Shown: positions 18,421-22,286 of the stretch, one piece after another | Layout of the letters: each line of letters begins with the position of its first letter | How positions within the stretch are numbered: position 1 is the stretch's first letter | Origin: Actinoallomurus bryophytorum | Lineage (GTDB): Bacteria > Actinomycetota > Actinomycetes > Streptosporangiales > Streptosporangiaceae | Assembly: GCF_006716425.1 (NCBI RefSeq) | Contig: NZ_VFOZ01000001.1 | Location: 3,224,001-3,288,000 of the forward strand | Direction of reading: 5' to 3' | Length of the DNA stretch: 64,000 nt | Translations under genes and position numbers: made by a program | Notes under the pieces: generated by a model | Databases searched by the model: none | The model's input: the letters and a program-made list of their open reading frames with translations, nothing else | What the model was told of the DNA's origin: nothing

Positions 18421-19578
18421 GTGATCCGGTACACACGTGCGCTCGCCGGCGCACTCACCCTGGCCCTGGCGGCCGGCGTCGCATCGTCCGCGGTGACGCC
18501 ACATGCGGACGCCACGGACCGGCCCGCGCTCCGGCAGGTGCTGCGGCGTCTGACCACCGAGGACGGGGCGCCCGGGGCGCTCGCCGAGATCGAAGACGGG
18601 CACGGGAGAACGGTGCTGACCAGCGGCGTCGCCGACCTGGACACCGGCGCGCCGATGCGCGGCGACAGCAGGTTCCGTATCGGCAGCATGACCAAGCCGT
18701 ACGTCGCGACCGTCATCCTGCAACTCGTCGGCGAGCACCGCGTCTCGCTGGACGCTCCGGTGGAGCGCTACCTGCCGGGCGTGGTGCGGGGCCACGGCAA
18801 CGACGGCCGCGAGATCACCGTGCGCGAACTCCTCCAGCACACGAGCGGGCTGCCCGACTATCTGGCCTACCTGTCGTTCCCGGACTTCATCGCCGACCGC
18901 TATGCCCACCACGATCGGGCGGAGCTGCTGTCGCTCGCCCTCGGCCATCCTCCGGTCTTCAAGCCGGGCACGGGCTGGGGCTACTCCAACACCGAATACC
19001 TGCTGGCCGGGATGCTCATCGAGAAGGTGACCGGGCACCCGTACGGCGAGGAGGTCCGCCGGCGCATCCTGGTACCTCTCGGCCTGCGCGCGACGTACGT
19101 GCCCGGCGACAGCCCCACGATCCCCGGTCCGCACCCACGCGGCTACATACGACCCGACGACGGCACACCGATCGTGGAGATGACGGAGTTCAACCCCTCG
19201 ATCGCGATCGCCTCGGGCGACATGATCTCCAGCGGCGCCGACATGTCGCGGTTCTTCGACGCGCTCCTGCACGGGCGGCTACTCCACCCGGCCGAGCTGC
19301 GGGAGATGATGACGACGCGGCCGACCGGTGGCGCGAACGGAAGAGCGTACGGCCTCGGCCTCGAGAGCAGGACGCTGCCCTGCGGAGGTGTGTACTGGGG
19401 CCACGGCGGCGACATCTTCGGCTTTGAGACGCTCGGCGGCGCGACCACCGACGGGCGGAGTGCGACGGTCATGGTGAACCTCGACCCCGGCGGCACGGAC
19501 GCCCAGGACGATGACGCCACGGCCGCGATCGGGGCGGCACTCTGCGACGACCCCGGACGGAGCCCGGCGTCCCGGTGA
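18421..19578 (+). CDS. Secreted serine hydrolase, class C beta-lactamase/D-Ala-D-Ala carboxypeptidase fold
   Basis: 385 aa with an N-terminal signal peptide (about 30 residues, cut near the Ala-rich VTPHADA). The active site has SMTK (Ser-x-x-Lys), YSNTEY (Tyr-x-Asn) and a C-terminal GHGGDIFGFE box replacing KTG, as in serine hydrolases of the AmpC/DD-peptidase family. It acts outside the membrane; substrates could be peptidoglycan stem peptides or esters. GTG start with GGGAGG six bases upstream. Monocistronic. Confidence 0.87.
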   Translation: MIRYTRALAGALTLALAAGVASSAVTPHADATDRPALRQVLRRLTTEDGAPGALAEIEDGHGRTVLTSGVADLDTGAPMRGDSRFRIGSMTKPYVATVILQLVGEHRVSLDAPVERYLPGVVRGHGNDGREITVRELLQHTSGLPDYLAYLSFPDFIADRYAHHDRAELLSLALGHPPVFKPGTGWGYSNTEYLLAGMLIEKVTGHPYGEEVRRRILVPLGLRATYVPGDSPTIPGPHPRGYIRPDDGTPIVEMTEFNPSIAIASGDMISSGADMSRFFDALLHGRLLHPAELREMMTTRPTGGANGRAYGLGLESRTLPCGGVYWGHGGDIFGFETLGGATTDGRSATVMVNLDPGGTDAQDDDATAAIGAALCDDPGRSPASR

Positions 19579-19579
19579 C

Positions 19580-21262
19580 CTACCCGGCCTCGTCCTCGGG
19601 CGGTTCGGGCCGGACCGCGGGCCGCTTCGGGGACTTGGGCCGCGCCGGGATCGACGGTAGCGCCGGGGTCGCCGGCGTTGCCGGGGTCATCGCTCTCCCG
19701 GATGCCGGCTTCGCCGGGGTCAACGGCCTCCCTGGAGTCAGCGGAGAGAGCGGCAGCCCCAGAGCGGGCCGCGCCAACGGCGACGCCACCGCCGGCGGGC
19801 GGCCGGCCTGCACGCTCCACAACACCGCGCCATCCGGGGCGCGCAGCGCGACACCGTCGTCCTGCACGGTGAGCACGCTTTCCGGGTGGCCCGCGGTGTC
19901 GGTGGACCAGACGACGCGCGCCTCCCGGTCATAAAGCGCGAGGTTTCCGTCCGGGTGAAGAACCAGCCGGCCGGTCCCACGCCACTGGGTGCCGGACGAC
20001 CACACGGCGCCGCGGCCCGCGTTGTCGTAGAGGACGAGGTTCCCGTCGTCCTGGTGGACGAACGTGTACCGGCCCGAGGCCGAGGTGAGGGACTGCCGTC
20101 CGAGCGTCTGGCCGGGGAGCATCCGATCGCCCATGGCGACCGGTCCCTCCGGCACCGCGGCCTCGGCGGTCCCCGACGACCAGACCGCCGTGCCGGTGGA
20201 GTCCTCCACGGTGATGTCGCCGTCGTCGCGCACGACCAGCCGGGCCGCGGTGCCGCCCTCGGTGCCAGAGGACCAGACCCGTCCGCCGTCACCGTCGAGG
20301 AGGACGAGCCCGTGGGTCCCGTGCAGGGTGCAGACCCGGGCCTGTGTTCCGTCGGTACCGGCCGCCCACAGCGAGCGGAACTCGGTGTTGTGGTAGAGCA
20401 CGAGGTTTCCGTCGTCCTGGTGGACGAGGGTGTATCTCCCCGACGGCGAGGTGAGCGACTGCCTCCGCAACGCCTGCCCGGCGTGCAGCCGGTCGCCCTG
20501 GGCGAAGTCGCCGAGAGCGATGTGCGTGCTCTCCTCCGGAGACTCGTCGTCCTCGTCGTCCTCGTCGTCCTCGTCGTCCTCGTCGTCCTCGTCGTCCTCG
20601 TCGTCCTCGTCGGGGAGAAGGAAGAAGTCGGTGAGCAGGCACGCCACCTCGCCATCGGCGGTACGCCCGACCCAGGTCGGGTAGTGCCCGTCGCCACCGC
20701 CGGAGGAGAACGCGACCACGACCGGCTCGGATTCGGCATCGGTCAGGGTCACCGGCGCGGTGTAGTCGTTGTCACGCTCGCCGAGGGCCTCCAGCAACCG
20801 GTCGAGATACTCCCCGTCGGCGTCCAGGGACGGGATGACCTGTGCGTCGACGAAGCCGCCGGTGCCACCGTCCACGGGGTAGCCGAAGTACTCGTCGTCG
20901 CCGAGCTTCGCCACGTCCTGGCCGTCGTAGACCGCCATCTCCCATGAGGCGACGGGCTCGTCCCGGATGACGAGGCGAGCCGCGGCGATGGTCGCGTGGG
21001 CGATGGCGTCCTCGCCGTCCTCGCCGCCGAAGACCCCGAGGATGAGCACGACCGGGTAGTGACCGGGCGGCACCCGCTGGACGAACCCGTCCGAGGCGTC
21101 CCCGGCGAAGTACATGAACGGCTCACCGGCGACGACGCGGCCGGAGGGCAGCCACAGGGAGGCGCCCGTACGCAGCCGGATCGTGACCTCGCGCCCACCC
21201 CAGATGGTGTGGCGGGTGCCGGGAGCGAAGAGTCGCTCGAAGTCGGGGGCGGGCAGGGGCAT
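19580..21262 (-). CDS. DUF4241 - acidic linker - tandem B-lectin fusion protein
   Basis: 560 aa. Residues 15-215 match DUF4241 (VVLILGVFGGEDG, ASWEMAVYDGQDVAKLGDDEYFGYPVDGGTGGFVD). Residues 218-242 are an Asp/Asp/Glu run encoded by a 9-bp repeat. Residues 246-490 hold two bulb-type (mannose-binding) lectin domains, each with one intact QxDxNxVxY site (QDDGNLVLY near 284 and 406) and degenerate copies (HPDGNLALY, RDDGDITVE). The tail is Pro/Thr/Ala-rich. There is no signal peptide. ATG 21262 has AAGGAG five bases upstream. Role unknown; lectin sites imply binding of mannose-like glycans. Confidence 0.8.
   Translation of the reverse strand: MPLPAPDFERLFAPGTRHTIWGGREVTIRLRTGASLWLPSGRVVAGEPFMYFAGDASDGFVQRVPPGHYPVVLILGVFGGEDGEDAIAHATIAAARLVIRDEPVASWEMAVYDGQDVAKLGDDEYFGYPVDGGTGGFVDAQVIPSLDADGEYLDRLLEALGERDNDYTAPVTLTDAESEPVVVAFSSGGGDGHYPTWVGRTADGEVACLLTDFFLLPDEDDEDDEDDEDDEDDEDDEDDESPEESTHIALGDFAQGDRLHAGQALRRQSLTSPSGRYTLVHQDDGNLVLYHNTEFRSLWAAGTDGTQARVCTLHGTHGLVLLDGDGGRVWSSGTEGGTAARLVVRDDGDITVEDSTGTAVWSSGTAEAAVPEGPVAMGDRMLPGQTLGRQSLTSASGRYTFVHQDDGNLVLYDNAGRGAVWSSGTQWRGTGRLVLHPDGNLALYDREARVVWSTDTAGHPESVLTVQDDGVALRAPDGAVLWSVQAGRPPAVASPLARPALGLPLSPLTPGRPLTPAKPASGRAMTPATPATPALPSIPARPKSPKRPAVRPEPPEDEAG
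20543..20613 (-). repeat. 9-bp coding repeat (Asp-Glu-Asp run)
   Basis: About eight copies of GTCGTCCTC (plus strand) encode the acidic linker of the DUF4241/B-lectin protein. Unit length keeps frame, so copy number can vary without breaking the gene. Confidence 0.8.
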
Positions 21263-21341
21263 GGCCACTCCTTGAGGGGAGTTCGGGGGGCATGACGGGA
21301 CGCGCGGCGAAGGGCACCACGGTCCTGGAACTGCGGACCGC

Positions 21342-22286
21342 TCAGTAGCGGGCGCCGACCGGCGGCGGCACGGCGTCCAGCTCGGCGAGGTCTTCGTCGG
21401 TCAGGTCGACGCCGGCGGCCATGGTGTTCTCGTGGAGGTATCTGCGCTTCTTCGTCCCGGGGATGGGGATGACGTGGTCGCCCTGTGCGAGGGTCCAGGC
21501 GATGGCGACCTGCGCCGGGGTGGCGCCGTGCCGGTCGGCGACCGTACGGACGACGTCGACGATACGGAAGTTCTGCTCCAGGACGCCCTTCTGGAAGCGC
21601 GGCAGCCCGGCGCGGAAGTCGTTGTCCTCGAAACTCGTCTTCGTGACCGCGCCGGTGAGGAATCCACGTCCGAGCGGCGAGAACGGCACGAACGCCGCGC
21701 CGCTGGCGGCGCACCAGCCCACGACGCCACCGGCGGCGAGCGGGTCGCGGGTCCACAGCGACAGCTCGGACTGGATCGCCGAGACGGGATGGACTCCGTG
21801 CGCCTCCTCGGCCTGCGCGACGGTCACCTCCGACAGGCCCAGCCGGCCTACCTTGCCCTCCGCCACCAACTCCGACATCGCGCCCCACGTCTCGACGAGC
21901 GGGACCTCCGGGTCGATCCGGTGCAGGTAGTACAGGTCGATGACGTCGGTGCCGAGCCGCCGCAGGCTGGCCTCGACCGCCTCGCGTACGTGCCCGGGTG
22001 AGCCGTCGCGGACCATGTCGCCGGTCGCCGGGTCGACCACCAGGCCGACCTTGCTGCCGAGCACGACTTTGTCGCGTACACCGCCCAGAGCACGGCCGAC
22101 GAGCTGCTCGTTGTGGCCGGCACCGTAGACGTCGCTCGTGTCCAGGAACGTCACGCCGAGGTCGACGGCCTCCCTGATCAGGGCGACCGACTCGCGGTCA
22201 TCGCGCTCGGACTCGGTGTAGGCCCAGCTCATGCCCATGCAGCCGAGACCGACCGCACCCACATAGCGGTCCGCGAACATCCTCAT
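21342..22286 (-). CDS. Aldo/keto reductase
   Basis: 314-aa NADPH-dependent AKR with a TIM barrel. LGCMGMSWAY at the start, FLDTSDVYGAGHNEQLVGRAL (catalytic Asp and Tyr), KVGL (catalytic Lys), DLYYLHRIDP (catalytic His) and the C-terminal PIPGTKKRRYLHENT cofactor loop are all present. It resembles the AKR13/YakC group; physiological substrate unknown. GAGAGGAA precedes the ATG. Confidence 0.9.
   Translation of the reverse strand: MRMFADRYVGAVGLGCMGMSWAYTESERDDRESVALIREAVDLGVTFLDTSDVYGAGHNEQLVGRALGGVRDKVVLGSKVGLVVDPATGDMVRDGSPGHVREAVEASLRRLGTDVIDLYYLHRIDPEVPLVETWGAMSELVAEGKVGRLGLSEVTVAQAEEAHGVHPVSAIQSELSLWTRDPLAAGGVVGWCAASGAAFVPFSPLGRGFLTGAVTKTSFEDNDFRAGLPRFQKGVLEQNFRIVDVVRTVADRHGATPAQVAIAWTLAQGDHVIPIPGTKKRRYLHENTMAAGVDLTDEDLAELDAVPPPVGARY

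What the first reader, a model, noticed from the sequence alone, without database searches (positions are those of the whole stretch)
19580..21262. DUF4241 joined to tandem mannose-type lectin domains by an acidic repeat
A domain of unknown function is linked through a 9-bp-repeat Asp/Glu run to two B-lectin domains, each with an intact QxDxNxVxY site, plus a Pro/Thr tail; no signal peptide. Tandem B-lectins occur in lectin-like bacteriocins and DUF4241 is unstudied, so the combination is novel in appearance.
Basis: partly seen in the sequence, partly recalled or inferred. Interest (0 to 1): 0.5.

Follow-up and report, generated by a model that had tools for sequence, protein, structure and literature searches.

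The report
Immunity-type domain joined to tandem lectins
A soil actinomycete gene joins a domain of a kind that bacteria seem to use against rivals' toxins to sugar-binding lectin domains in one protein without a recognisable export signal; similar lectins carry other immunity-type domains, which may be a new form of toxin protection, though no function is shown.

Summary
The minus-strand gene 21262..19580 encodes 560 aa: DUF4241 (134 bits), an acidic linker with a local 9-bp repeat, two B-lectins and a Pro/Ala-rich tail, with no export signal recognised. Each lectin keeps one of three QxDxNxVxY sites; so do all 16 lectin copies of eight such proteins compared, the window's included (Actinoallomurus, Saccharopolyspora). 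The bacteriocin reading is weak: the lectins resemble putidacin and pyocins, but the family cut-off is missed (121 against 275 bits) and the architecture differs. In other phyla DUF4241 lies beside toxin or immunity genes in 4 of 9 plasmid contexts judged (Fic, RHS, SUKH, Imm22, Tdi1) and fits 'Imm13' of a 2012 survey. Related lectins are fused instead to SUKH (two genomes) or, more distantly, DUF6461 and DUF6924, again without a recognisable signal. Best reading: an orphan, lectin-tethered immunity-type protein. Against it: no toxin gene recognised nearby, no clear toxin or immunity enrichment around 15 actinobacterial DUF4241 loci, and signal-like N-termini on two proteobacterial DUF4241 proteins. 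No paper in the library searched names DUF4241. Function is inferred, not shown.

The parts
19580..21262 (-). whole gene, 560 aa, DUF4241 + acidic linker + two B-lectins + Pro/Ala tail
   Evidence: translation; Pfam; full-length orthologues
21268..21273 (-). Shine-Dalgarno AAGGAG, five bases before the ATG (a GTG at 21268 would add two codons)
   Evidence: sequence
20630..21157 (-). DUF4241 (PF14025), residues 36-211; conserved Asp131, Asp139, Asp191 and GDGxY motif
   Evidence: Pfam; 14-row diverse alignment
20507..20620 (-). acidic linker, residues 215-252; flexibility inferred from composition
   Evidence: alignment; sequence
20543..20612 (.). perfect 9-bp repeat CTCGTCGTC x 7.8 coding for the Asp/Glu run
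   Evidence: Tandem Repeats Finder
20162..20497 (-). B-lectin domain 1, residues 256-367
   Evidence: lectin HMM (171.6 bits; the HMM was trained on this family)
20393..20419 (-). intact QxDxNxVxY site of domain 1 (QDDGNLVLY, residues 282-290)
19802..20131 (-). B-lectin domain 2, residues 378-487
   Evidence: lectin HMM (172.2 bits); Pfam best stretch 431-470
20027..20053 (-). intact QxDxNxVxY site of domain 2 (QDDGNLVLY, residues 404-412)
19583..19801 (-). Pro/Ala-rich tail, residues 488-560, variable between orthologues
   Evidence: alignment; dN/dS; composition
21342..22286 (-). aldo/keto reductase upstream on the same strand, 79 bp away; same order in L055 and L201, not seen in L056/L202; probably a neighbour rather than a partner
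   Evidence: Pfam; ORF maps read by eye

Best explanation
The gene makes a cytosolic, orphan (toxin-less) immunity-type protein. Its DUF4241 domain most likely binds and blocks a toxin domain delivered by a competing bacterium (inferred). The two lectin domains, each with one conserved sugar pocket, act as a second recognition arm that concentrates the immunity domain on a mannose-like glycan carried by the toxin or by the envelope where it enters (inferred, weakest step). The acidic linker and Pro/Ala tail are flexible spacers (inferred from composition). Shown here: the architecture, its conservation, the lack of a recognisable export signal, the one-site-per-lectin pattern, and related lectins fused to SUKH, DUF6461 and DUF6924. 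Not shown: toxin binding, sugar binding, localisation.
For: (1) DUF4241 in toxin/immunity arrays: Nostoc plasmid, RHS-repeat gene (weak C-terminal Endonuclea_NS_2, E 0.0099, 16.5 bits, below its cut-off of 27), then DUF4241, T6SS_Tdi1_C, an unidentified gene, DUF4241; Phocaeicola, Imm22 (two stretches in one protein) - unidentified - SUKH-1 - Imm22 (two stretches) - DUF4241 - DUF4265; Subdoligranulum, SUKH-3 before and SUKH-1 after DUF4241; Fusobacterium, Fic gene 8 bases upstream. (2) 'Imm13' in the 2012 survey PMC3482391 is alpha+beta with four Asp, partnered with Tox-Doc in fusobacteria, present in polyimmunity loci and moved to eukaryotes (passages); this fits the Fic neighbour, two invariant and one nearly invariant Asp and giant-virus structural matches. 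(3) The lectins closest to these outside DUF4241 proteins are fused to SUKH: L120 (SMI1_KNR4 E 2.8e-9) and L121 (6.8e-11), both over cut-off; they score 107-134 bits against 58-81 for secreted lectins (the HMM was trained on the DUF4241 lectins). (4) First site complete in 16 of 16 DUF4241-lectin and 9 of 10 SUKH-lectin domains, second and third in none of these 26. (5) No signal-like segment in the first 50 residues of 17 of 17 fused proteins tested. (6) dN/dS below 1 in every domain of five pairs, lowest in lectin 2 (0.14-0.36).
Against: No toxin gene was recognised beside the window gene (Pfam of three flanking genes) or its orthologues' genes (ORF maps read by eye). Around 15 actinobacterial DUF4241 loci (93 ORFs) the 25 commonest Pfam families shown hold no immunity family and no toxin family, apart from the generic ATPase model AAA_21 ('putative AbiEii toxin', 4 members, one of them an ABC transporter); 93 control ORFs show none (88 and 133 families in all, the rest not displayed). 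SUKH lies within 10 kb of DUF4241 in 1 of 19 genomes. Five of the nine plasmid contexts judged lack a clear toxin or immunity family over cut-off, among them Rhizobium, where DUF4241 sits in a 2-oxoglutarate dehydrogenase operon; Streptomyces chromosomal copies sit by eye beside gltX-like and leuCD-like genes. The Rhizobium and Methylobacterium DUF4241 proteins begin with signal-like segments by eye, so not every DUF4241 is cytosolic. The lectins of L041, L042, L047, L155 and L057 have no complete site, and the lectin scores of L041, L042, L047 and L057 (30-80 bits) overlap or fall below those of secreted lectins. DUF6461 and DUF6924 have no known function. PADLOC gives no match. No ALF repeat was found in the own genome, but no control rang. 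That DUF4241 is Imm13 is my inference: the paper text held does not name DUF4241.
Confidence: 0.4

Rival explanations
1. Cytosolic glycan or sugar-metabolite sensor: DUF4241 has a UTRA/chorismate-lyase-like ligand-binding fold and works with the lectins to read sugars, with no role in toxin conflict.
For: The DUF4241 model (pLDDT 85) has 21 top second-look rows that are effector domains of GntR-type regulators (PhnF, DasR, YvoA and others), a DUF98 protein or chorismate lyase, Z 4.1-4.9, then a drop to 3.3 (the fold name UTRA is recalled). DasR and YvoA entries are complexes with sugar phosphates (entry titles). Some DUF4241 genes sit with metabolic genes.
Against: Z below 5 over about 100 residues at 3-4 A may be only a common arrangement by the tool's own note; Foldseek gave no match at E <= 0.001. 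It does not explain the immunity arrays or the swap with SUKH.
Confidence: 0.2
2. Surface agglutinin or adhesin released without a Sec signal (lysis or an unknown route) that binds envelope glycans of actinobacteria, with DUF4241 as a passive module.
For: Conserved sugar sites. The first structural row of the lectin part, tied within 1 Z with plant and fungal lectins, is the umbrella-toxin protein UmbA4 bound to a teichuronic acid (9oee, Z 16.4, rmsd 1.6 A, 113 residues).
Against: No signal-like segment in 17 of 17 fused proteins, while 10 of 11 lectins labelled secreted have one, and the secreted copies fall in another tree group. L041, L042 and L047 lectins have lost their sites, so sugar binding is not needed throughout the class.
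Confidence: 0.15
3. Lectin-like bacteriocin: the tandem lectins kill related strains and DUF4241 is an accessory or toxic domain.
For: Best PDB sequence match is putidacin L1, E 3.6e-20; NCBIfam LLB_putidacin matches at E 4.6e-35; LlpAs mostly lack a Sec signal (PMC6240691, passages).
Against: NCBIfam LLB_putidacin 121.3 bits against a cut-off of 275. Extra N-terminal domain and long tail. LlpAs keep motifs mainly in the C-terminal lectin, here both domains keep one equally. LlpA targets BamA, which actinobacteria are not known to have (recalled). Related lectins carry SUKH, an immunity domain.
Confidence: 0.06

Closest known systems
Polymorphic-toxin immunity proteins and polyimmunity proteins (Zhang et al. 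2012, PMC3482391, passages read; Imm13, SUKH, Imm22)
   Same: DUF4241 lies in arrays with SUKH, Imm22 and Tdi1 and beside Fic and RHS genes in other phyla; patchy (19 of 150 genomes in the order; 5 of 396 in the phylum; own genome counted in both).
   Different: One immunity-type domain fused to lectins; no toxin or immunity neighbour recognised at this locus; the passages read put bulb-lectins on toxins and say nothing of them on immunity proteins.
SUKH + B-lectin proteins found here (L120, L121)
   Same: Immunity-type N-terminal domain, then a tandem of closely related B-lectins with one complete site each (9 of 10), no signal-like segment.
   Different: SUKH in place of DUF4241; six or four lectins in place of two.
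Lectin-like bacteriocins (putidacin L1, pyocins L1 and L2)
   Same: Tandem B-lectins; best sequence match among solved structures.
   Different: No DUF4241, no acidic linker; family cut-off missed; Gram-negative outer-membrane target.
Secreted actinobacterial B-lectins (this genome's L002; M. smegmatis lectin 4oit)
   Same: Same domain family and phylum.
   Different: In 25 copies from 11 secreted lectins, sites 1, 2 and 3 are complete in 19, 18 and 19; signal-like N-termini in 10 of 11; another tree group.
Umbrella toxin subunit UmbA (PMC11062931 and PMC13274773, passages read)
   Same: Actinobacterial conflict protein with lectin-type domains, one of the 41 UmbA-associated families being a bulb-lectin; UmbA4 is the first structural row.
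   Different: UmbA has a trypsin-like domain and belongs to a secreted particle; the UmbDs named in the passages are Imm1 and Imm88, not DUF4241. UmbA4 was not in the sequence search.

Membership tests
DUF4241 (PF14025) | Pfam gathering score | tested here: met
   134 bits against 27, residues 36-211
B_lectin (PF01453) | Pfam gathering score and sugar-site motif | tested here: met
   42.9 bits against 32.4; one QxDxNxVxY per domain
Lectin-like bacteriocin | NCBIfam NF033557 cut-off | tested here: not met
   121.3 bits against 275, though E 4.6e-35
Lectin-like bacteriocin | two B-lectins plus a short C-terminal extension | tested here: not met
   N-terminal DUF4241 and 73-residue tail; definition from the abstract
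Lectin-like bacteriocin | killing of relatives through BamA | not testable with these tools
   needs a killing assay
Polymorphic-toxin immunity protein | gene next to a toxin cassette | tested here: not met
   none recognised at the window or by eye at orthologues; met for some other DUF4241 genes
Polymorphic-toxin immunity protein | lies in a polyimmunity array | tested here: not met
   not at this locus; other DUF4241 genes do
Polymorphic-toxin immunity protein | binds and neutralises a toxin domain | not testable with these tools
   needs a rescue or binding assay
Imm13 | alpha+beta, four conserved Asp, Tox-Doc partner in fusobacteria | tested here: inconclusive
   Fic neighbour in one Fusobacterium record; three Asp clear, a fourth not; paper text held does not name DUF4241
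Polyimmunity protein | two or more immunity domains in one polypeptide | tested here: not met
   one in the window protein; L057 and L047 carry two DUFs each, of unproven role
UmbA (umbrella toxin) | trypsin-like domain before the lectin, exported | tested here: not met
   no trypsin match in Pfam, no signal-like segment

The most novel reading that the evidence does not exclude
A mirror image of polymorphic toxins: where toxins swap toxic tips on a constant delivery stalk, actinobacteria here swap immunity-type domains (DUF4241, SUKH, perhaps DUF6461 and DUF6924) on a shared branch of lectins with one sugar pocket per domain, giving lectin-guided immunity against glycan-targeting toxins such as umbrella particles.
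Probability: 0.2. Interest if true: 0.75.

Novelty: new variant of a known kind. Interest (0 to 1): 0.5.

Why it matters
If right, it gives DUF4241 a testable role and shows that immunity domains can be combined with sugar recognition in one unexported protein. It also links bulb-lectins, one of the domain families that umbrella toxins use to bind actinobacterial surfaces, to the defending side of such conflicts, and supplies concrete protein pairs (Fic or RHS with DUF4241) to test the immunity role.

Tried and rejected
Bacteriocin membership: rejected on the family cut-off and architecture. Phage origin of DUF4241: no match in phage records, and none of 42 candidate stretches in viral contigs confirmed; but BFVD lists 7 viral models at Foldseek E <= 0.001, giant-virus and phage-labelled, down to 4e-7. 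Defence-system database: no match for 4 proteins. Fold of DUF4241: no confident relative in the PDB; the UTRA-like rows are kept only as a rival. Full-length model: mean pLDDT 48, with DUF4241 itself mostly under 50, so neither the lectin-to-lectin arrangement against LlpA (rmsd about 18 A) nor disorder of linker and tail is argued from it. Co-location tests in actinobacteria: negative. Operon with the aldo/keto reductase: same order in window, L055 and L201 but not in L056/L202, so not treated as a partner. ALF repeats (umbrella stalks) in the own genome: none, but no control rang. Literature: DUF4241 in 0 papers; DUF4241, DUF6461, DUF6924 and DUF6928 in 0 papers; 'PF14025' in 8 papers, mostly on Plasmodium by title; SUKH with lectin and related terms, 12 papers of which 10 were listed, none on such fusions by title or abstract start; B-lectin, SMI1, KNR4 and related terms, 0 papers with four of five; Imm13 together with 'immunity protein' in one paper.

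Choices that bear on counts. One search used 31 proteins picked by me; of the 19 lectin regions taken were used and 5 (L122, L156, L158, L160, L165) left out. The lectin HMM was trained on the DUF4241 lectins, so its scores favour them. Three of 72 lectin units, under 25 bits, were dropped before the 69-row tree. My first script mis-scored the third site; one search recounted all three. L057 (DUF4241 + DUF6924) was counted with the DUF6461/6924 group, not with the 16 DUF4241 copies; its single lectin unit lacks a complete site. L197 (S. mirabilis) was not scored. 'Secreted' labels were given by eye, and the starts of several proteins there are my choice. The neighbour pool covers 15 of the 22 other genomes with a DUF4241 match; left out were G017, G020, G055, G117, G130, G139 and G190. 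Of 107 ORFs picked, 8 DUF4241 genes and 6 further ORFs at the DUF4241 match were left out; one ORF kept (L185:5698-6429) lies antisense to a DUF4241 match and is probably spurious. The control pool left out the 4 ORFs of L179 by oversight, so it rests on 14 regions. No matched control was run for the nine plasmid contexts.

Full report
What is there. The minus-strand gene 21262..19580 encodes 560 residues with a Shine-Dalgarno AAGGAG five bases before the ATG. Pfam assigns DUF4241 to residues 36-211 (134 bits, cut-off 27) and B_lectin over its cut-off with two stretches. The acidic run is coded by a perfect 9-bp array of 7.8 copies, the only array found in the 5 kb searched. The family search finds one DUF4241 gene in the 9.47-Mb genome. 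The genus is Actinoallomurus by its nearest named relatives.

Conservation. Full-length proteins of this make-up exist in 4 of the 8 genus genomes searched, the window's own included, and in four Saccharopolyspora genomes. In the alignment of seven the N-terminus, DUF4241 and both lectins are conserved (53-71% identity to the window protein). The linker is acidic in all but varies in length, and the tail varies freely. dN/dS by my own Nei-Gojobori script in five chosen pairs is 0.22-0.56 for DUF4241, 0.23-0.73 for lectin 1, 0.14-0.36 for lectin 2, 0.39-0.95 for the linker and 0.36-0.77 for the tail. The 9-bp repeat itself therefore looks like a local expansion in a linker kept for composition rather than for sequence.

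Lectin sites. In the 69-unit comparison the first QxDxNxVxY site is complete in 16 of 16 lectin copies from eight DUF4241 proteins and in 9 of 10 copies from two SUKH proteins; the second and third are complete in none of these 26. In 25 copies from 11 secreted lectins, sites 1, 2 and 3 are complete in 19, 18 and 19. In 13 copies from seven proteins with DUF6461 and/or DUF6924 (L057 among them) only 2 have a complete first site and none a second or third. So the DUF4241 and SUKH lectins keep one pocket per domain, while most of the DUF6461/6924 lectins have lost it: sugar binding is not general to the wider class.

Which lectins are kin. With an HMM built from the DUF4241 lectins (a bias to keep in mind), SUKH-fused lectins score 107-134 bits, the best copies of L034 and L039 102-108, L155 94, two lectin proteins of other architecture 91-96, secreted lectins 58-81, and the best copies of L041, L042, L047 and L057 61-80, inside the secreted range. 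The tree puts the secreted copies, with four other rows, in one group (support 94/90, just short of the tool's star) and the SUKH copies in one (92/93); the five labels need 7 changes against 38 on shuffled labels. Few columns and near-copies limit what the tree can say. The partners are established by Pfam: SUKH (SMI1_KNR4) in L120 and L121, over cut-off; DUF6461 in L034 and L039 over cut-off, and at or just under it in L041, L042 and L047; DUF6924 over cut-off in L057, L041, L042 and L047; and by eye DUF6924 in L155. A Streptomyces mirabilis plasmid carries a further DUF4241 protein whose C-terminal half reads like the lectin part of L057 (by eye). None of 17 fused proteins has a signal-like segment in the first 50 residues (highest 1.22), against 10 of 11 secreted ones at 1.88 or more and one at 1.38.

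What DUF4241 does elsewhere. Fifteen plasmid records hold a DUF4241 gene. I fetched the surroundings of 12 and judged neighbours in 9. Four show families tied to toxins or immunity over their Pfam cut-offs: Nostoc (RHS-repeat gene, Tdi1_C), Phocaeicola (Imm22, SUKH-1), Subdoligranulum (SUKH-3, SUKH-1) and Fusobacterium (Fic directly upstream). Two related Streptomyces plasmids have two DUF4241 genes, one with DUF1877 between them. Dyadobacter has an Imm11 match below cut-off. Rhizobium and Tsukamurella show nothing of the kind. In Rhizobium and Methylobacterium the DUF4241 protein itself starts with a signal-like segment by eye, which does not fit a uniformly cytosolic family. There was no matched control for these nine. 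The 2012 survey of polymorphic toxins (PMC3482391, passages read; 300,000 of 357,715 characters are held) lists Imm13 as alpha+beta with four Asp, with Tox-Doc in fusobacteria, in polyimmunity loci and laterally moved to eukaryotes. That fits the Fusobacterium Fic pair, the invariant Asp139 and Asp191 and near-invariant Asp131 in a 14-row alignment, and giant-virus structural matches. I take DUF4241 = Imm13 as likely, not proven.

Negative tests. In Actinomycetota the association is not seen. Among the 25 commonest families shown for 93 neighbours of 15 DUF4241 loci there is no immunity family; the only toxin-labelled one is AAA_21 ('putative AbiEii toxin', 4 members), a model that also matches ordinary ABC ATPases, as its first member here shows. 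The 25 shown for 93 control ORFs from 40 kb away hold none, AAA_21 included. The lists are cut at 25 of 88 and 133 families. SUKH lies within 10 kb of DUF4241 in 1 of 19 genomes, 17 of which have SUKH at all. No toxin was recognised beside the window gene. Its reading as an immunity-type protein therefore rests on the family's context in other phyla and on the SUKH swap.

Structure. The DUF4241 model is good (pLDDT 85, pTM 0.85) but finds no confident PDB relative; the best second-look rows are GntR effector domains, a DUF98 protein and chorismate lyase at Z 4.1-4.9. The full-length model is poor (pLDDT 48), yet its lectin part matches B-lectins clearly; top rows, tied within 1 Z, are UmbA4 of the umbrella toxin (9oee, Z 16.4, rmsd 1.6 A, 113 residues), Gastrodia lectin and Marasmius lectin. 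UmbA4 did not appear in the sequence search, so this is shared fold, not shown kinship.

Judgement. The bacteriocin reading is unlikely. The most economical account is an orphan immunity-type protein in a modular set where immunity-type domains are joined to a particular branch of B-lectins. What the lectin arm binds, and whether DUF4241 blocks a toxin, are open and testable. On re-reading the calls I lowered the best explanation from 0.42 to 0.40, because the signal-like N-termini of two DUF4241 proteins and the overlapping scores of some fused lectins had been left out.

Noticed in passing
L058-L063, 6001-6645 and surroundings: A DUF4241-only gene (64-65% identical to the window domain) lies in a stretch 99.96-99.98% identical over 9.7-12.6 kb in Saccharopolyspora, Amycolatopsis and Prauserella genomes: recent mobile element or cross-contamination.
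   Followed up: partly
L042:85-3255 (+): One Actinoallomurus protein combines an OAA-type lectin, weak discoidin, B-lectin and DUF6461 matches (below cut-off) and DUF6924.
   Followed up: no
L007, L009, L015, L017, L076, L088, L089: Other actinobacterial DUF4241 proteins carry about 190 or more N-terminal residues that Pfam does not name; some starts are uncertain.
   Followed up: no
window 18421-19578 and 19580-21262: A beta-lactamase-family (PF00144) gene converges on the finding with only one base between the two stop codons.
   Followed up: no
L164:1987-3390 (-): Protein with a trypsin-like look (by eye) followed by a B-lectin, no signal-like segment at the start used; a possible UmbA relative.
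   Followed up: no
L080:5123-6615 (+): Fusobacterium vincentii Fic gene and DUF4241 gene 8 bases apart, a candidate toxin-immunity pair.
   Followed up: partly
L077:4815-5561 (+), L198:5842-6639 (+): Rhizobium and Methylobacterium DUF4241 proteins start with signal-like hydrophobic segments, read by eye.
   Followed up: no
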